Assembly (NCBI GenBank): GCA_025060295.1
Contig: JANXCH010000023.1
Location: 62,001 to 126,000 of the forward strand
Direction: 5' to 3'
Source of the DNA: Dehalococcoidia bacterium
GTDB lineage: Bacteria; Chloroflexota; Dehalococcoidia; Lucifugimonadales; HRBIN23
DNA: 64,000 bases
Made by a program: the position numbers and the translations under genes. Positions 48,480-56,648 of the stretch are shown piece by piece (the first letter of the stretch is position 1; the number at the start of each line of letters is the position of its first letter). The notes beneath the pieces are model-generated. The model saw only the letters and a list, made by a program, of their open reading frames with translations. It did no database searches and was not told the origin of the DNA.

Positions 48480-49336
48480 CCCTCCTCCTGCAGGGCGTGG
48501 TAAAGGCTCTCCCACTGGGGGATGGACAGGGCTTCGGGGCGCGCCGCGAGGGGGATGGACGCCGTACTGAAGGCCCGCTCCACCCTTTCACCGGGGAGGT
48601 TCAGGGAACGGCGCAGGTGGCCTCCCAGTTGCTTGCGGTGGGCCTGAAACCCCAAGCGGACGAGTGCGAAAAACCCCGCCAAATGGGCCGACGGAACCCG
48701 CGGTTGGGGGTACACCTCCAGGCGCACCACGGCCGAGGCGACCCGAGGAGGCGGATAAAAACAGCGGGCGGGTACCACGCGCACCAGGCGGGGATGAGCA
48801 TACACTTGAATCCCTACGCTCAGTAGGGTCATACGCCCTGGGGGTGCGCACATCTGCAGTGCCACTTCCTTTTGCAGCATGACCACCATTAAAGTGGGGC
48901 GATGCCCATCTTCTAGGAAGCGTCGGATGATGGGGACGGCGGCGTAGTAGGGGAGGTTGGCCACGACCTTGTAGGGCAAAGCCGGCGGCAGCCAGGGGGA
49001 AAGGTCTACGGTGCGGGCATCCCCCTCCACGATAGTCGTAGAGGGATAGGGCGCAAAGAGGCGGGTGAGGGCACGAGCCAGGGTCGAATCCAGTTCCACC
49101 GCGATGAGGCGGGCCACACGGGTAGCCAACAACTCGGTCATAAGTCCCAACCCCGGCCCAATCTCCACCACCACATCCTGGGGTGTTAGGGCGGCGGCGC
49201 GTAGGATGCTCTCCAGCACGCCCCGGTCCACCAGGAAGTGCTGGGCGAGGCGCTTGGTGGGGCGTATGCCCAGGGCGCGCAGGCGCTCCTGGACCTGTCG
49301 GCGCAGGCTGGGGGGCGAGGGGGCCGTTACGCCAAT
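48461..49336 (-). CDS. rsmA: Dimethyladenosine rRNA methyltransferase RsmA (KsgA), probable ATT start
   Basis: A 16S rRNA A1518/A1519 dimethyltransferase of about 291 residues. SAM motif I is VVEIGPGLGLMTELL, and the catalytic motif IV is VANLPYYAAVPI. The conserved N-terminal segment RPTKRLAQHFLVDRGV lies upstream of the first canonical start, GTG 49231, which would cut it. No ATG, GTG or TTG exists in frame above it. ATT at 49336 with AGGAG 9 nt before fits the family length, so an AUU start is proposed. It overlaps the amidohydrolase end by 10 bp. Confidence 0.85.
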   Translation of the reverse strand: MGVTAPSPPSLRRQVQERLRALGIRPTKRLAQHFLVDRGVLESILRAAALTPQDVVVEIGPGLGLMTELLATRVARLIAVELDSTLARALTRLFAPYPSTTIVEGDARTVDLSPWLPPALPYKVVANLPYYAAVPIIRRFLEDGHRPTLMVVMLQKEVALQMCAPPGRMTLLSVGIQVYAHPRLVRVVPARCFYPPPRVASAVVRLEVYPQPRVPSAHLAGFFALVRLGFQAHRKQLGGHLRRSLNLPGERVERAFSTASIPLAARPEALSIPQWESLYHALQEEGWTPSA

Positions 49337-50169
49337 TTCAGGGCTCTCCTGGCGTTCTCCAAGAGTACTTTCGGGCGCACCTCATCCTTGATGGGGAGGG
49401 CCTCAAACTCCCGCAGCCACCGCTCGGGTGTGATGAGGGGGTAGTCGGAGCCGAACAGGACTTTATCTTGGAGGCGGGTGCTGATCTCCCGCACCAGGCT
49501 ATCGGGGAAGTAGCGGGGTGCCCACCCGGACAGGTCGATGTAGACATTGGCCTTGTGGATGGCCACGGCGATCTGCTCCTCCTGCCAGGGCCAGCCGGGG
49601 TGGGCCATAATGATGGTCAAATCGGGGAAGTCGGCGGCCACATCGTCAATGTGCAGGGGGTTGCTGTACTTGAGTTTGATGCCCCCGCCGCCCGGGAGGC
49701 CGGCCCCGGCACCGGCGTGGCCCGAGTGGAAGAGGACGGGGATGCCCAGGCCGCGGGCGGCGTCATAGAGGGGGTAGAAACGGGGGTCGTTGGGGAAGAA
49801 GGCTTGATGGTTGGGGTGAAGTTTGAGGCCCCGCAGGCCCAACTGCTTGACGCCCCGCTCCAGTTCCTCAATGGCCTTTTTGCCCTTCCAGGGGTCAATG
49901 CCTACAAAGCCGATGAACTGCTGGGGATACTTTTTGACGATAGAGGCCACATAGTCAATGCTATCGGGGGGTTCGCCGCTGGTCGTCTCGGTGTCCACTG
50001 TGAGGAGGACGCCGATGATGTCCCACGCCTTATACTGGGCGGCCATAGTGTCGGCATCGGGGGGTGGGGGGCCGGCGCGAAAGTACCGGCGCATGGCCTC
50101 GGAGAGGCGGGTGGGGGGCAGGCCGGGCTGACGGGGAACGTGCACATGCACATCAATGGCTTTGACCAC
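49327..50169 (-). CDS. Amidohydrolase family protein
   Basis: A 280-residue TIM-barrel metal hydrolase of the amidohydrolase 2 type (ACMS decarboxylase-like). Metal-site residues appear in IDVHVHVPRQ, LKLHPNHQAF, FHSGHAG, IIMAHPGWPWQ and FGSDYPLITP. GTG at 50169 follows GAGGTGCACC, the leader shared with tsf and ndk. It is immediately downstream of the SRP RNA gene, so transcription may read through into it. The substrate is unknown. Confidence 0.85.
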   Translation of the reverse strand: MVKAIDVHVHVPRQPGLPPTRLSEAMRRYFRAGPPPPDADTMAAQYKAWDIIGVLLTVDTETTSGEPPDSIDYVASIVKKYPQQFIGFVGIDPWKGKKAIEELERGVKQLGLRGLKLHPNHQAFFPNDPRFYPLYDAARGLGIPVLFHSGHAGAGAGLPGGGGIKLKYSNPLHIDDVAADFPDLTIIMAHPGWPWQEEQIAVAIHKANVYIDLSGWAPRYFPDSLVREISTRLQDKVLFGSDYPLITPERWLREFEALPIKDEVRPKVLLENARRALKLA

Positions 50170-50194
50170 GGTGCACCTCGTAGAGAAGGCATTG

Positions 50195-50459
50195 GCCGTG
50201 CACCCCCTCTTGAACGTGGCGTGCGGGCATAGGCTTCGGGACGGCTCCGGCCAGGCGCTCCTGCGGCGCGCAGAAGGGACTGCTGACCGTTGCTCCCTTC
50301 CGGGCCTGGCGGGGTTCACAGGTTCTGCCGCGCAGGACCCAGCCCTCCACGCCGTCGGGGGAAGCCCAGGGGCCCTCACGCCCGCCCGCAAGGGGGAGTT
50401 CGACCCCGCTGTGGCGGATTGCGGGTGCAGGGCACCGCCAACTCCCCGTCTAGCACGGC
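50195..50459 (-). ncRNA. ffs: Large bacterial signal recognition particle RNA
   Basis: About 265 nt on the minus strand. The 5' end GCCGTGCTAGACGGGGAG opens the Alu domain with GGCGGTGCCCTG, and the 3' end GGGGGTGCACGGC pairs back to it. Domain IV is intact: CCAGGCCCGGAAGGGAGCAA, the Ffh-binding loop. Long GC helices close the S domain (TCCTGCG with CGCAGGA). The form with an Alu domain is the large type known from Gram-positive and related phyla, not the short 4.5S. Confidence 0.88.
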
Positions 50460-50496: not shown

Positions 50497-50563
50497 CGAT
50501 GGGGGTTTACTTTCCCCCTGCCCTCCCGATACCATGCGGGCGACACCCGTGCGGAGGAAAGGG

Positions 50564-51499
50564 ATGCGTCTGCCTATAGGGCTGCACACCGGCCAGCAGG
50601 ATGCCACCTACCAGGAACTGCGCCGCGTCTGGCGTTGGGCCGACCGAGAGGGGTTCTCCTGGATTTCGGTATGGGATCACATGTATGAGACCCCGCCCGT
50701 GGATGGCACCCACCCCTGCTTCGAGACCGTCTCCATCTGGACCGCTTTGGCTATGGAGACCCGCCATGTGCGCGTCGGCTGTCTGGTAATGAATGTGGGC
50801 TACCGCAACCCAGGGCTGATCGCGAAAACGGCGTGCACCCTCGACCATATCAGCGGGGGGCGGTTGACCCTGGGGCTAGGGGCGGGCTGGCACGAAATGG
50901 AGTACATCGCCTATGGCTACACCTTCCCACCCCCCAAGGTGCGCCTGGACATGCTGGAAGAGGGCGTCCAAATCGTGCGCTCCCTCCTGACGCAGGAGAC
51001 CACGACCTTCGAGGGGAGATATTTCCGCGTGGTCAACGCCTATTGCAATCCCAAGCCCGTCCAACCCCGTGTGCCGGTGTGGGTGGGGGGGCAAGGGGAG
51101 AAGCGCACCCTACGCATCGCCGCCCGCTATGCTGACGGCTGGAACTGTCCGTATGTTTCCCCCCAGGACTTCGCCCGTAAGTGCGCTATCCTGGACGAAT
51201 ACTGCCGCGTGGAGGGGCGCGACCCCAGGAGCGTCTTCCGCAGTGTGAACATCGGCTTCTACATGGGCTACGACGAGGCCGACGCCCAACGCAAGCGGGA
51301 CTTTCTGCGCAAGCAGTGGGGCGCTCAAGCGGCCCAGCGGGAGGGAGGCATGCTCACCGGCTCGCCCCAAGAGGCCATAGAACGTATTCACCAATATATC
51401 GCCGCAGGTGCCCAGCAGGTGAACATCGCCTTGCGCGCCCCCTTTGACTGGCGGGCCCTGCGCGCCTTCGCCCAGAAGGTTTTACCCCAGTTCTCATAA
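50564..51499 (+). CDS. LLM-class flavin-dependent oxidoreductase
   Basis: A 311-residue luciferase-like TIM-barrel monooxygenase using FMN or F420. It has WADREGFSWISVWDH, ALAMETRHVRVGCLVMNVGY and the ISGGRLTLGLGAGWHEMEY block typical of the class, then PVWVGGQGEKRTLRIAARYADGW. ATG at 50564 follows GGAGG with 6-nt spacing. It is 5 bp before the DNA methyltransferase gene. The substrate and cofactor are unknown. Confidence 0.9.
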   Translation: MRLPIGLHTGQQDATYQELRRVWRWADREGFSWISVWDHMYETPPVDGTHPCFETVSIWTALAMETRHVRVGCLVMNVGYRNPGLIAKTACTLDHISGGRLTLGLGAGWHEMEYIAYGYTFPPPKVRLDMLEEGVQIVRSLLTQETTTFEGRYFRVVNAYCNPKPVQPRVPVWVGGQGEKRTLRIAARYADGWNCPYVSPQDFARKCAILDEYCRVEGRDPRSVFRSVNIGFYMGYDEADAQRKRDFLRKQWGAQAAQREGGMLTGSPQEAIERIHQYIAAGAQQVNIALRAPFDWRALRAFAQKVLPQFS

Positions 51500-51504
51500 G
51501 GACG

Positions 51505-52398
51505 ATGCAGCCAACCCTCCTCCCCGCGCACGACTTCGGGCCACCGCCCGGATGGGCCCAGTTCGCCCTGGTGGACAGCCCCGACATTCCCGAGTATCCC
51601 CTCCACCAGGTCATGGATAAGGTCATCCTGGGCGATGCCTTGCAGGTTCTCCCCAAACTGCCCGGGGAAAGCGTGGACATGGTCTTCCTGGACCCCCCGT
51701 ACTTTCTGCAGTTGCCCCGCAAGCGCCTTGTGCGGTGGGGTGTGCGCACCCCGGTGGAGGGGGTGGATGAGGCGTGGGACAAGTTCGGCAGTTTCGCCGA
51801 GTATGATGCCTTCCTGACCCGTATCCTGCAGGAGGTCCGACGCCTCATGCGCCCCACGGCCACCCTCTGGGCCATCGGCACGTACCATAACATCTTCCGC
51901 GTGGGCAAGATCCTGCAGGACTTGGGGTTCTGGATTCTGAACGATGTGATCTGGGTGAAGCCCAATCCCATGCCCAACTGGCTCAATGTGCGCTTCACCA
52001 ACGCCACCGAGACCCTTATCTGGGCCGTCAAGGACAAGGGGTGCAAGGGCTACACCTTCCACCACGCTGCGGCGCGGCGCTACGCCTCGGGGAGGGTGGC
52101 GCGCAACATCTGGGAGGTGCCCCTGTGCACCGGACGGGAGCGGGTGAAGGACGCCTCCGGGCGCACATTGCACCCCACCCAAAAGCCCGAGGCCCTGTTG
52201 GAGCGGGTGCTGGCGGTGTCCACCCGCCCGGGGGATGTGGTGCTGGACCCCCTGGCAGGGGTGGGCACCACCGGCGTGGTGGCGCGCCGTATGGGAAGGC
52301 AGTGTATTATGGTGGAGCGGGAGAGGCGGTATGTGGAGGCGACGCTTCTTCGCCTACAATGTATCAACGGGGTGGATGACCTGGTTGTAACACGCTAA
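51505..52398 (+). CDS. CcrM/HinfI-like adenine-N6 DNA methyltransferase
   Basis: A 297-residue beta-class DNA methyltransferase. Motif IV DPPYFLQL comes first (near residue 70), and motif I VLDPLAGVGTTG is near the C-terminus (near 248). The segments WDKFGSFAEYDAFLTR, GTYHNIFRVGKILQDLGFWI and NPMPNWLNVRFTNATETLIW closely match CcrM/M.HinfI, which methylate GANTC. It is shorter than CcrM (358) and seems to lack the C-terminal DNA-recognition domain. It starts 5 bp after the LLM gene and lies 31 bp before the type IIG gene. Confidence 0.88.
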   Translation: MQPTLLPAHDFGPPPGWAQFALVDSPDIPEYPLHQVMDKVILGDALQVLPKLPGESVDMVFLDPPYFLQLPRKRLVRWGVRTPVEGVDEAWDKFGSFAEYDAFLTRILQEVRRLMRPTATLWAIGTYHNIFRVGKILQDLGFWILNDVIWVKPNPMPNWLNVRFTNATETLIWAVKDKGCKGYTFHHAAARRYASGRVARNIWEVPLCTGRERVKDASGRTLHPTQKPEALLERVLAVSTRPGDVVLDPLAGVGTTGVVARRMGRQCIMVERERRYVEATLLRLQCINGVDDLVVTR

Positions 52399-52429
52399 CC
52401 GTTTCCCCAACCGGGATGGGGAGGCAGAC

Positions 52430-55400
52430 ATGGATACCTTTACAAAACACTTGGAAGACTATTTGCAGAACCTCGCCGATATTCGCGCACGCGATGCCTC
52501 GGAGGATACCATTCGGGACGCTTTCCTGCAGTTCCTGCGGGGGGCTTTCCCCCGCCTGGAACAAGTGGTTCCCCTCTCCCTTGAACAATATGTCCCCGCC
52601 ATCCGTGTGCGGGGAGGGTTCGCCGACATCCTTTTCGGCGACCTCATCTGGGAGTTCAAGCGCCGTTTGGACCAGGCGAGTTGTGCGGATGGCCTGGAGA
52701 AACTGCAACGCTACTTGTCCAATCAGCCCCACCCCGAACGCTTCACGGGTATCCTCACCGACGGTGAAACCCTCGAGGCTTATGCCCTGCAGGAGAACAC
52801 CCTCCAGAGAATAGACATCACCCGTTTGCAACAGGACAAGGCGGAACAGGTCAAACTGTGGCTGGACTCCTACCTCTTCCACGAGAAGGTGTTGTCCCCC
52901 ACGGCAACGGATGTGGCCCTCCGCTTCGGGGAGCGCAGCGCCACCTTTTGGCACAGCCGGCGGCTCCTGACGGACATCTGGCAACAGCGCTCCGCCGACC
53001 CCTCCGCCTACCCCTCCACCCAAACCAAGTTCGCCGAGTGGCAAAGCCTCCTCTCTATCGTTTACGGCTCCGCGGTCGGCAACGACGACCTCTTCTTCCG
53101 CCACACTTATCTGGCCCTTTTCGCCCGGGTGTTGGCCTTCGTCGCCCTCCAACGGCGCGCCCCCTCCGAAGACGAGGTGAAGGGGCTTCTGGACGGGGAC
53201 ACCTTCGAACGGCTCGGCCTGGGCAACTTCGTGGAGGACGACTTCTTCACCTGGCCGGGCGATCAGGCAACCCCCCTCCTCCAGGCCCTGGCCACACGCT
53301 TGACCGCTACCTATGAACTTTCCCACATCACCGAAGACCTCCTGAAGGAACTCTATCAGGAGCTGGTGGACCCCGCCACGCGCCACGACTTGGGCGAATA
53401 CTATACCCCCGACTGGTTGGCCGAACTGATTCTTCGCCAAGCCGGCTTTCCCCCTCCCCAGCGCCCCCTGGGGCAGGCCCACTCCCTGTTAGACCCCGCC
53501 TGCGGCTCGGGCACTTTCCTATTTCTGGCAGTGCGTCTCCTGAGGGAGGCGGGTGTGCGGGGGCGAGAACTCGCCGAGTTCTGCGCCTCGCACATGGCAG
53601 GCATTGATGTCCACCCCCTGGCCGTTACCATCGCCAAGACCAACCTCATCCTGGCCCTGGGCGATGACCTCCGCAGCTATGGGCGCCGGTTTGACCTGCC
53701 CATTTATATGGCCGATGCCCTTTTCGAGGCGCGCCCCCTGGAAGGGGCGCTTCGGGTGCCTGTGGACACCGCCACTCTTGCCCAGCGCTCCGGCAAAGAG
53801 CGTCCATCCCACATCCCCTCCCAGTTCCTGCTTCCCATCTCTTTGGTGGCACGGCCCGACACCCTGGATGAGGCCCTAGACGCCCTCATCGCCTACGCCA
53901 AACCCGACTCGACCAAGAAGGAGGAGGAGGAGGCCTTTGAGGGCTTCCGTCATCGCCTCGCCCGCCTGTTCCAGCCCCTGCAGGATTGGGATGTGTGGGA
54001 GGGCAACCTGCGCCTGATGCGCTGGCTCCTTCAGCCTCCCGCCACCGACAGCGTGTGGCGGTTCATCCTGAAGAACGCCTACCGCCCCGCTCTCCTGGCC
54101 CAGCGCACATTCGCCTTCGTGGTGGGCAACCCCCCGTGGCTGGCCTATCGCTACATCGCCCGCCCCGACTACCAGCAACGCGTGCGGAAAATGGTCTTTG
54201 AGCATTCCTTGCTGGAAAAGCGCTCCACCCACCTCTTCGCCCTAATGGAGATGGCCACCCTTTTCTTCGCCCATTGTGCCGAGCGCTTCTTAGCCGATAG
54301 GGGCACCCTGGCCTTTGTCCTCCCCCGTAGCGTCCTGACCCAGGCCAAACAGCACCGCGGATTCCAGACACGCTTCCTGGCCCACGCTCGCCGAATCATA
54401 GACTGCGAAGGTGTGGTGCCCCTTTTCCAGGTGCCGGCGTGCGCTGTGGTGTGGGTCAAGGGGCCAACCCCGCCACAGCCCCCCGCAGGCGTGCCCTGCC
54501 TGCGCCTGGAGGGCACCCTGCCCTCCCGCAACGCCCCTTGGGCCATCGCCCACAAGCACCTCACCCAAGAGGCTACCACCTTTCACCCCCCCAAGCCTGG
54601 GGCCCCCAGTCCCTATTTTGAACATTTCAAGGCGGGGGCTTGTATCTACCCGCGTGTGCTGTGGTTCGTGCGCCCGCCCGAGGACCGAAGAATCACTGAC
54701 CTCCACCAGCCCTATCTGGAGACCGACCCGTCGGTGAAGGCCCGCGCCAAACCCCCGTGGAACAGGGTGCACATGCGGGGCGAGGTGGAGTCCCCCTACC
54801 TTTTCGCCACCCTGCTGTCCGACGACCTTTTGCCCTTCGGGTGGCGGCGCCTGTCGCTGGTCGTTCTCCCCCTGGCCTCAACGCCGGAAGGGCAGAGGAC
54901 GATGCTAGACAGCTCAGCGGCAGCCCACAGGGGTGCCCCCAAACTGGCCGATTGGCTTCGGAAGGCCGAGTCTGATTGGAATAAGCAGCGCAAAGGGCAG
55001 ATAGACCTGCAGGCCTGGCTGAACTGGCAGGGGAAACTGACACGCCAGCATCCCAGTGGGGTGGTGAAACTCCTCTACAACGCCTCAAGCACCCACCTGT
55101 GCGCCTGCGTGGTGGACGCCCGGGATGCTCACCAGTGGCAGGTGCACGGCATCCCTGTTCAGGGGTTCGTTGCAGATAACACCACATATTTCCTGGAAAC
55201 ACAAAATTCAGTGGAAGCCCATTACATATGCGCTATTTTGAACGCTCCCTTGGTAGACAAAACTATCAAACCATTTCAGACTAAAGGCCTTCTGGGTGAA
55301 AGGCATATTTCCCGATGGCCCTTTGAAGTTCTGCCCATTCCCAAGTTTGACCCGCGCAATCGTGTGCACCTGCGGTTGGCGGCCCTGTCGGAGGCGTGCC

Positions 55401-55531
55401 ATGCGAAGGTGGCGCGGATGGGGCCTTTTTCGGGGGATACATCCATCGGGCGTCTGCGCCGGCAGGTACGGGAGACTCTGCGGGAGGAGATCAAGGAGAT
55501 AGACGCTTTGGTGCAAAAGATGCTAGGCTAG
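52430..55531 (+). CDS. Type IIG restriction-modification enzyme (fused nuclease and N6-adenine methylase)
   Basis: A 1033-residue single-chain restriction-modification protein. The N-terminal PD-(D/E)xK nuclease core is D66 with E75-x-K77 (FADILFGDLIWEFKRR). The methylase has motif X-like HDLGEYYTPDWLAELI near 325, motif I DPACGSGTFLFLA near 355 and motif IV VGNPPWLAYRY near 566. The C-terminal part, about 700-1030, is the likely target-recognition domain, ending with the AILNAPLVDK and HISRWPFEVLPIP segments. ATG at 52430 follows GGAGG. The recognition site is unknown. Confidence 0.9.
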   Translation: MDTFTKHLEDYLQNLADIRARDASEDTIRDAFLQFLRGAFPRLEQVVPLSLEQYVPAIRVRGGFADILFGDLIWEFKRRLDQASCADGLEKLQRYLSNQPHPERFTGILTDGETLEAYALQENTLQRIDITRLQQDKAEQVKLWLDSYLFHEKVLSPTATDVALRFGERSATFWHSRRLLTDIWQQRSADPSAYPSTQTKFAEWQSLLSIVYGSAVGNDDLFFRHTYLALFARVLAFVALQRRAPSEDEVKGLLDGDTFERLGLGNFVEDDFFTWPGDQATPLLQALATRLTATYELSHITEDLLKELYQELVDPATRHDLGEYYTPDWLAELILRQAGFPPPQRPLGQAHSLLDPACGSGTFLFLAVRLLREAGVRGRELAEFCASHMAGIDVHPLAVTIAKTNLILALGDDLRSYGRRFDLPIYMADALFEARPLEGALRVPVDTATLAQRSGKERPSHIPSQFLLPISLVARPDTLDEALDALIAYAKPDSTKKEEEEAFEGFRHRLARLFQPLQDWDVWEGNLRLMRWLLQPPATDSVWRFILKNAYRPALLAQRTFAFVVGNPPWLAYRYIARPDYQQRVRKMVFEHSLLEKRSTHLFALMEMATLFFAHCAERFLADRGTLAFVLPRSVLTQAKQHRGFQTRFLAHARRIIDCEGVVPLFQVPACAVVWVKGPTPPQPPAGVPCLRLEGTLPSRNAPWAIAHKHLTQEATTFHPPKPGAPSPYFEHFKAGACIYPRVLWFVRPPEDRRITDLHQPYLETDPSVKARAKPPWNRVHMRGEVESPYLFATLLSDDLLPFGWRRLSLVVLPLASTPEGQRTMLDSSAAAHRGAPKLADWLRKAESDWNKQRKGQIDLQAWLNWQGKLTRQHPSGVVKLLYNASSTHLCACVVDARDAHQWQVHGIPVQGFVADNTTYFLETQNSVEAHYICAILNAPLVDKTIKPFQTKGLLGERHISRWPFEVLPIPKFDPRNRVHLRLAALSEACHAKVARMGPFSGDTSIGRLRRQVRETLREEIKEIDALVQKMLG

Positions 55532-55565
55532 TGCCCTGTGAGCAACCGCGCAGAGGAGGCTCGGC

Positions 55566-56648
55566 ATGCTGGAAATTTTCAAGGTGCCCGAAAGGGTGGC
55601 GGTGCGGGTGCGCCCCGAGGCTTTGCGGAGCACGGTGGAGGCCATCTTCCGCAAGATGGGGGTGTCGGAGGAGGACGCCCGTATCGGGGCGGATGTGCTG
55701 GTCACGGCCGACCTGAGGGGGGTGGATACCCATGGCGTCTCCAATATGCTCCGCATTTATGTGGAGGGGTATGCTCAGGGCACGCTTAATCCCCGTCCCC
55801 GCTGGCGCATCGTGCGGGAGACCCCCGCCACGGCCAATGTGGACTCCGACTTCGGCCTGGGGATTATGGTGGTGCCCCAGGTGATGCGGATCGCCATCCG
55901 CAAGGCGAAGGAGACGGGGGTGGGGATGATCACCATCCATAACGGGCGCCACCTGGGGATGGCCGCCTACCATGCCATGCTGGCCCTGCCCCACGATATG
56001 ATCGGCATCTGCATGACGGCCACGGGGCCGACTATGCCCCCCACCTTTGGGCGGGAGGCCCGCCTGGGCACCAACCCCATCGCCATTGCCGCTCCCGCCC
56101 GCACGGAGCCCCCCTTCGTGTTTGATGCGGCGATGACCGTCATCGCCAACAACAAGCTGCGCTTGGCCCGCCGGCTGGGGACGCTCGTCCCGCCGGGGGT
56201 GTTGGCCAACGAGCGTGGGGAGCCGATTATGCACCCAACCCCAGTGCCCGACAAGTACTTCATCCTGCCCCTGGGGAGCATGCGGGAACTGGGCTCCCAC
56301 AAGGGGTATAGCCTGGCGTGTATGGTGGAGATTCTGGGGGGTGTATTGTCGGGGGCGGGGTTCGGCTTCAAGTTGGGGCGGGGGGCGGCTAACCACTTCG
56401 TGGCGGCCATCAACATAGACGCCTTCACACCGGTGGAGCGCTTCAAGGACGAGATGGACGAGTTTCTGCGCTCCCTGCGGGAGACGCCCCCCGCCCCAGG
56501 GCACGAGCGGGTGGTGTATGCGGGCCTGCCCGAGTGGGAGGAGGAGCAGGTGCGGCGCGTGCAGGGGATCCCCCTGCACCCGGAGGTGATTCACTGGTTC
56601 CGCACCATCTGCGGGGAGCTGGGCATTCCCTATACCTTGGAGGGGTAG
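55566..56648 (+). CDS. Malate/L-lactate dehydrogenase family (Ldh2) oxidoreductase
   Basis: A 360-residue NAD(P)-dependent 2-hydroxyacid dehydrogenase of the Ldh_2 fold, distinct from classic LDH/MDH. Family blocks are TADLRGVDTHGVSNMLRIYV, TIHNGRHLGMAAYHAMLAL, GTNPIAIAAPA and GSHKGYSLACMVEILGGVLSG. ATG at 55566 follows GAGGAGG. It stands 34 bp after the restriction gene and converges on the TPP-enzyme gene. The substrate may be malate, lactate or a sugar-derived acid. Confidence 0.9.
   Translation: MLEIFKVPERVAVRVRPEALRSTVEAIFRKMGVSEEDARIGADVLVTADLRGVDTHGVSNMLRIYVEGYAQGTLNPRPRWRIVRETPATANVDSDFGLGIMVVPQVMRIAIRKAKETGVGMITIHNGRHLGMAAYHAMLALPHDMIGICMTATGPTMPPTFGREARLGTNPIAIAAPARTEPPFVFDAAMTVIANNKLRLARRLGTLVPPGVLANERGEPIMHPTPVPDKYFILPLGSMRELGSHKGYSLACMVEILGGVLSGAGFGFKLGRGAANHFVAAINIDAFTPVERFKDEMDEFLRSLRETPPAPGHERVVYAGLPEWEEEQVRRVQGIPLHPEVIHWFRTICGELGIPYTLEG

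What the first reader, a model, noticed from the sequence alone, without database searches (positions are those of the whole stretch)
51505..55531. Solitary-type CcrM-like methyltransferase beside a type IIG restriction enzyme
The methyltransferase strongly resembles CcrM/M.HinfI (predicted GANTC), normally a cell-cycle enzyme of Alphaproteobacteria or a partner of HinfI. Here it is shorter, lacks the C-terminal recognition domain, and sits 31 bp before a complete type IIG protein that has its own methylase. Either it co-protects the same site, or two different marks are set from one operon. I do not know a described system of this form.
Basis: partly seen in the sequence, partly recalled or inferred. 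Interest (0 to 1): 0.6.

Follow-up and report, generated by a model that had tools for sequence, protein, structure and literature searches.

The report
Tail-less CcrM-type methyltransferase beside type IIG
A small gene pair slipped between two housekeeping genes of a bacterium encodes a DNA-cutting-and-marking enzyme and a separate DNA-marking enzyme from a distinct branch of the CcrM family that lacks a tail thought essential in CcrM; the pairing itself is local and not a recurring system, but the tail-less branch gives a natural test of how CcrM reads DNA.

Summary
In detail: a 297-aa CcrM-like adenine methyltransferase (51505-52398) lies 31 bp before a complete type IIG enzyme (52430-55531). 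A same-genus genome has the empty site, so window 51488-55563 is one accessory cassette between two core genes. The pairing is not a recurring system: none of 33 other chromosomal places with this IIG has such a neighbour, and no other methyltransferase locus carries the IIG. Type IIG enzymes with a companion methyltransferase are known anyway (Eco57I, BpuSI, BseRI).

The methyltransferase is the interesting part. It belongs to a 100/100-supported clade (26 sequences; Armatimonadota, Asgard archaea, Thermoproteia, Chloroflexota) that lacks the CcrM C-terminal domain throughout, keeps every base-contacting GANTC residue, and has tryptophan at two strand-separating loop positions (CcrM F125 and P45) in 26 of 26. 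Four Armatimonadota members adjoin an HpyAIV-family (GANTC) restriction enzyme. GANTC m6A is therefore likely (about 0.8).

Best reading: two independent marks from one cassette. Co-protection of a GANTC-containing IIG site, as in Eco57I, remains possible (about 0.3). Not tested: methylation, IIG specificity, structure (predictor closed). New variant of a known kind.

The parts
51505..52398 (+). Short CcrM-type beta-class m6A methyltransferase, 297 aa, catalytic domain only; start 6 bp after the stop of the upstream gene, preceded by AAGGA
51691..51738 (+). Codons for DPPYFLQLPRKRLVRW (residues 63-78): catalytic DPPY plus loop-2B with R77 (=CcrM R44, reads G) and W78 (=P45)
   Evidence: CcrM residue roles from PMC13092597; coordinates computed from the ORF start
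51964..51996 (+). Codons for NPMPNWLNVRF (residues 154-164): loop-45 with N158 (=N124), W159 (=F125 wedge), R163 (=R129)
   Evidence: coordinates computed from the ORF start
52399..52429 (+). 31-bp gap with a GGGGAGG ribosome-binding-like stretch before the IIG start
52430..55531 (+). Type IIG restriction-modification enzyme, 1033 aa: N-terminal PD-(D/E)XK-like nuclease, gamma-class methyltransferase, C-terminal presumed target-recognition part
52583..52660 (+). Nuclease signature residues E52, D66, E75-F-K77 of the IIG
51488..55563 (+). Whole accessory cassette; replaced by about 66 bp in same-genus genome G001
50534..51499 (+). Left flank: luciferase-like monooxygenase, core gene shared with G001
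55566..56648 (+). Right flank: malate/L-lactate dehydrogenase (Ldh_2), core gene shared with G001

Best explanation
The stretch is one accessory restriction-modification cassette between two core genes. The IIG is a self-sufficient enzyme that cuts and methylates its own site. The short methyltransferase puts m6A on both strands of GANTC, reading the target strand with the same loops as CcrM, but in a form that never carries the C-terminal domain; paired tryptophans in loop-2B (W78) and loop-45 (W159), with a more basic surface, are proposed to take over the strand-opening and backbone-holding work. The two enzymes then set two different marks, and the methyltransferase behaves as an orphan (protection against GANTC cutters, or a neutral or regulatory mark). 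Shown: gene anatomy, empty site, absence of the pairing elsewhere, clade, residue pattern, HpyAIV association. Inferred: GANTC activity, independence of the two specificities, role of the tryptophans.
For: Empty site in same-genus G001: the flanks align at 80 and 83% and about 66 bp replace the cassette. G001 has an IIG homologue (51%) elsewhere without a CcrM-like neighbour, as similar to the window IIG across the C-terminal part as across the core, so a similar enzyme lives without this partner. Of 33 other chromosomal IIG places in the phylum, none has a CcrM-type or other beta-class neighbour (a few are cut by contig ends); no fetched locus except the window has both genes. Clade: 26 sequences, support 100/100; profile scores are bimodal (over 415 bits against under 356 for the rest). 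CcrM base contacts R44, DPPY, W109, N124, R129 and K193 are kept in 26 of 26; F125W and P45W in 26 of 26 against 0 of 23 full-length. C-terminal domain absent in all short-clade loci and the window, present in 67 other loci. HpyAIV-family enzyme over cut-off in 4 of 201 Armatimonadota, each next to a short-clade gene, among 10 genomes with one (p about 3e-6). M.HpyAIV methylates GANTC by SMRT (PMC3936762).
Against: Gain or loss of both genes as one unit with a 31-bp gap suggests a functional link. A GANTC-specific companion could protect a GANTC-containing IIG site, as M.Eco57I (CTNNAG) does for Eco57I (PMC3874165). The window protein has T where CcrM has phosphate-contacting K187. In CcrM itself F125W methylates about 12-fold more slowly (PMC13092597). 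No HpyAIV-family enzyme is in the window's own genome. GANTC counts do not discriminate: the sibling without the gene is equally poor in GANTC.
Confidence: 0.58

Rival explanations
1. Eco57I-like companion: the IIG recognises an asymmetric site that contains GANTC (a GAGTC-like core, for example), methylates one strand only, and the short methyltransferase protects both strands through its degenerate palindromic specificity.
For: Adjacency with 31 bp and gain or loss as a unit; companion methyltransferases with wider specificity are known for monomeric type IIG enzymes (PMC3874165 Table 4).
Against: No relative of this IIG has such a companion, including the 51% homologue in the same genus whose C-terminal part is as similar as the core.
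Confidence: 0.3
2. The methyltransferase is a relic of a former HpyAIV- or HinfI-type system whose restriction gene was lost, hitch-hiking beside an unrelated IIG.
For: Its close relative L145 sits in an operon with an HpyAIV-family enzyme; none is found in the window genome.
Against: The frame and all catalytic and base-contacting residues are intact, which fits continued use; many clade members are stable orphans. It overlaps with the best explanation on present function and differs on history.
Confidence: 0.25
3. A cell-cycle regulator like Caulobacter CcrM.
For: Same catalytic family.
Against: Absent from the same-genus genome at this site, with only 35% matches elsewhere in it; absent from nearly all sampled members of its order and class; C-terminal domain absent. 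A persistent cell-cycle gene would not be this patchy.
Confidence: 0.04
4. The short methyltransferase has a site other than GANTC.
For: Loop-2B carries one extra residue and loop-45 differs at positions 125 and 126.
Against: Every base-reading residue is invariant and the partner enzymes are of the HpyAIV family.
Confidence: 0.15

Closest known systems
CcrM of Caulobacter (6PBD)
   Same: Catalytic domain; all target-strand base contacts for GANTC; both strand-separating loops present
   Different: No 83-residue C-terminal domain; W in place of F125 and P45, V in place of D46, L in place of K126; accessory, not persistent
M.HpyAIV / M.HinfI (GANTC type II R-M)
   Same: Predicted GANTC; other clade members adjoin HpyAIV-family restriction enzymes
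   Different: No HpyAIV-family enzyme in this genome; M.HinfI has the C-terminal domain (PMC10359602)
M.HhaII
   Same: A GANTC methyltransferase without the C-terminal domain (PMC10359602), so tail-less GANTC enzymes as such are known
Type IIG systems with accompanying methyltransferase (Eco57I, BpmI, BpuSI, BseRI)
   Same: A single-chain R-M enzyme with a separate methyltransferase gene
   Different: Companions described in the cited review are gamma-class, m5C or an m4C-gamma fusion, not CcrM-type; here shared specificity is unproven and the pairing is not conserved

Membership tests
CcrM (NCBIfam NF050803) | Score over the equivalog cut-off (830 bits) | tested here: not met
   336 bits
CcrM (NCBIfam NF050803) | C-terminal DNA-binding (RAMA-like) domain | tested here: not met
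   full-length relatives do hit RAMA
CcrM (NCBIfam NF050803) | Target-strand base contacts R44, DPPY, W109, N124, R129, K193 | tested here: met
CcrM (NCBIfam NF050803) | Conserved orphan of its lineage with a cell-cycle role | tested here: not met
   Empty site in same genus, patchy in order and class; cell-cycle role itself not testable
Short CcrM clade defined here (W45/W125, no tail) | Monophyly, both tryptophans, no C-terminal domain | tested here: met
GANTC type II R-M (HpyAIV) | Cognate HpyAIV-family restriction enzyme in the genome | tested here: not met
   HinfI-family model not searched genome-wide
GANTC type II R-M (HpyAIV) | m6A at GANTC | not testable with these tools
   needs long-read methylation data
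Type IIG restriction-modification enzyme | N-terminal PD-(D/E)XK nuclease residues | tested here: met
   E52, D66, E75 invariant, K77 in 10 of 12
Type IIG restriction-modification enzyme | Gamma-class methyltransferase motifs I and IV | tested here: met
Type IIG restriction-modification enzyme | C-terminal target-recognition domain | tested here: inconclusive
   Over 450 residues follow motif IV and align with relatives; no domain model matched and no structure could be predicted
Type IIG with accompanying methyltransferase (Eco57I-like) | Companion gene adjacent | tested here: met
Type IIG with accompanying methyltransferase (Eco57I-like) | Companion modifies the IIG's own site | not testable with these tools
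   IIG specificity unknown
Type IIG with accompanying methyltransferase (Eco57I-like) | Pairing kept among relatives | tested here: not met

The most novel reading that the evidence does not exclude
A monophyletic branch of CcrM-type GANTC methyltransferases opens the DNA strands without the C-terminal domain held to be essential in CcrM, using a paired-tryptophan wedge (CcrM positions 45 and 125); the branch serves as a restriction partner in Armatimonadota and as a solitary gene at a conserved locus in Asgard archaea.
Probability: 0.45. Interest if true: 0.65.

Novelty: new variant of a known kind. Interest (0 to 1): 0.5.

Why it matters
[quoted passage not shown] those orthologues were searched for with that domain as the seed (PMC13092597). 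The tail-less clade is a natural counter-sample that keeps the reading residues and changes exactly the wedge position studied by mutagenesis, so it makes the question of what the domain is for directly testable. It would also put GANTC methylation, by a solitary and locus-conserved gene, in Asgard archaea.

Tried and rejected
GANTC depletion as evidence of activity: rejected, as the sibling genome is as poor in GANTC. A split or frameshifted C-terminal domain downstream: searched in six frames, none in the window or in short-clade loci; L020 is a frameshifted full-length gene and was moved to that group. A general CcrM+IIG pairing: none found. Plasmid and phage collections: plasmid matches to the methyltransferase stay under 60% identity, and the IIG matches looked at have no CcrM-type neighbour; two viral contigs (L272, L273) carry a tail-less relative with W45 but F125 and a cysteine-rich tail. 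The promoter scan showed nothing useful.

Full report
Observation. The methyltransferase, 51505-52398, starts 6 bp after the stop codon of a luciferase-like monooxygenase gene; the IIG gene, 52430-55531, follows after 31 bp and ends 34 bp before a malate/lactate dehydrogenase gene. The methyltransferase is a beta-class enzyme with DPPY (Pfam N6_N4_Mtase), 280 bits to CcrM structure 6PBD over residues 38-285 and 336 bits to the CcrM model, well below its cut-off. The IIG has the nuclease residues E52, D66, E75 and K77, motif I DPACGSG and motif IV NPPW.

Cassette. The window lies at G000:C23:62001-126000 of a 1.6-Mb assembly, most likely Chloroflexota (inference: the phylum search returned a CcrM gene, L088, nearly identical to the Roseiflexus one, L032). 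In a same-genus genome (G001, locus L086) the monooxygenase gene is followed directly by the dehydrogenase gene; window 51488-55563 is replaced by about 66 bp. The cassette was gained or lost as a unit, or in two steps that look like one. G001 has its own IIG, 51% identical, at another place and without a CcrM-like gene; flanking genes are 80-83% identical in DNA, so the two IIGs are not simple vertical orthologues.

Pairing. In 59 relatives and 400 genomes of the phylum I examined 33 IIG places outside the window; none has a CcrM-type or other beta-class methyltransferase as neighbour (some contigs are short). Among all 283 loci fetched, only those of the window itself hold both genes. Five plasmid relatives were read with their annotation; one (annotated BseRI) has another large methyltransferase 580 bp downstream and one lies downstream of a methyltransferase/helicase pair; none has a CcrM-type neighbour. 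Type IIG enzymes with companions are in any case known: BpuSI with two, BseRI with a fusion, Eco57I and BpmI with one (PMC3874165).

The short clade. The nearest relatives (58-70%) are in Armatimonadota, Desulfurococcales, Heimdallarchaeota and Ardenticatenia, all as short as the window protein. With a profile of five short sequences (A2), genomes split into two groups: short members over 415 bits and the rest, mostly full-length CcrM, under 356 bits. A tree of 59 catalytic domains gives the 26 short members one branch with 100/100 support. The window protein falls with Armatimonadota L009, L143 and L145, with modest support (93/63). A C-terminal-domain profile hits 67 other loci and none of the short clade; Pfam RAMA is found in the full-length relatives tested and not in the short ones. 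A second, separate loss exists in Armatimonadota (L154, L157, L160, L165, L168, L170; another branch, F125 and P45 kept).

Residues. In CcrM the target strand is read by R44 (G), DPPY and K193 (A), R129 and W109 (T) and N124 (C); F125 in loop-45 packs on L42 of loop-2B and keeps the strands apart (PMC13092597; PMC6787082). In the short clade all of these except F125 are invariant, while F125 is W and P45 is W in 26 of 26, with one or two extra residues in loop-2B; none of 23 full-length proteins has either tryptophan. Other discriminating positions are D46V, L81M and K126L, and the mean net charge of the catalytic domain is +6.5 against +2.1. CcrM F125W still separates strands but methylates about 12 times more slowly. 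That the tryptophans replace the domain is a proposal, not a result. A viral relative has W45 with F125, which may be an intermediate; it was not placed in the tree.

Specificity. Next to four Armatimonadota members lies a 288- to 307-aa gene that matches NCBIfam HpyAIV (214-248 bits, cut-off 160). These four are the only ones of 201 genomes over the cut-off, and all carry the short gene (10 genomes do), p about 3e-6 by a simple hypergeometric count that ignores relatedness. In one Asgard genome an HpyAIV-family gene adjoins a full-length CcrM, so the same restriction family pairs with both forms. M.HpyAIV methylates GANTC by SMRT sequencing (PMC3936762). Hence GANTC is likely for the window enzyme. 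Asgard members sit at a conserved locus beside a NUDIX gene or an S9-peptidase gene, as solitary genes.

Function of the pair. The simplest reading is two marks. For co-protection, the IIG site would have to contain GANTC. Against it stand the partnerless relatives, among them the same-genus IIG with an equally similar C-terminal part; for it stands the tight linkage. Neither is decided. A cell-cycle role is unlikely, given the empty site in the same genus and the patchy distribution.

Limits. Methylation, IIG motif and expression are untested. GANTC counts were uninformative. Several genomes are draft assemblies, and absence in them is weak evidence. M.HhaII, a known tail-less GANTC enzyme (PMC10359602), could not be compared.

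Noticed in passing
50196-50458 (-): Bacterial large SRP RNA (Rfam RF01854, 163 bits) right beside the cassette; the long ORF 49327-50391 (-) runs into it, so that gene's true start is probably near 50170.
   Followed up: no
L154, L157, L160, L165, L168, L170 (Armatimonadota): A second tail-less CcrM-type group on its own branch, keeping F125 and P45, with similar neighbouring genes: separate loss of the C-terminal domain.
   Followed up: partly
L012, L172-L180 (Asgard archaea): Short CcrM-type gene as a solitary gene at a conserved locus by a NUDIX gene or an S9 peptidase gene, about 10 of 195 genomes sampled; looks like a stable archaeal orphan methyltransferase.
   Followed up: partly
L272 and L273, 2833-3939: Viral contigs (one of 162 kb) with a tail-less relative that has W45 but F125 and a cysteine-rich tail: possible intermediate or anti-restriction enzyme.
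   Followed up: partly
L145, 593-3641 (-): Apparent three-gene operon: a second methyltransferase with TSPPYW (m4C type by motif), the short CcrM-type gene, and an HpyAIV-family restriction gene.
   Followed up: partly
82 of 400 phylum genomes: CcrM-type genes, mostly full-length by open-frame size, recur within several families of the window's phylum, as if a persistent orphan there, while the window's class nearly lacks them.
   Followed up: no
G000 contigs C3, C8, C10, C13, C16, C20: The 1.6-Mb genome carries about eight further regions that match DNA methyltransferases weakly.
   Followed up: no
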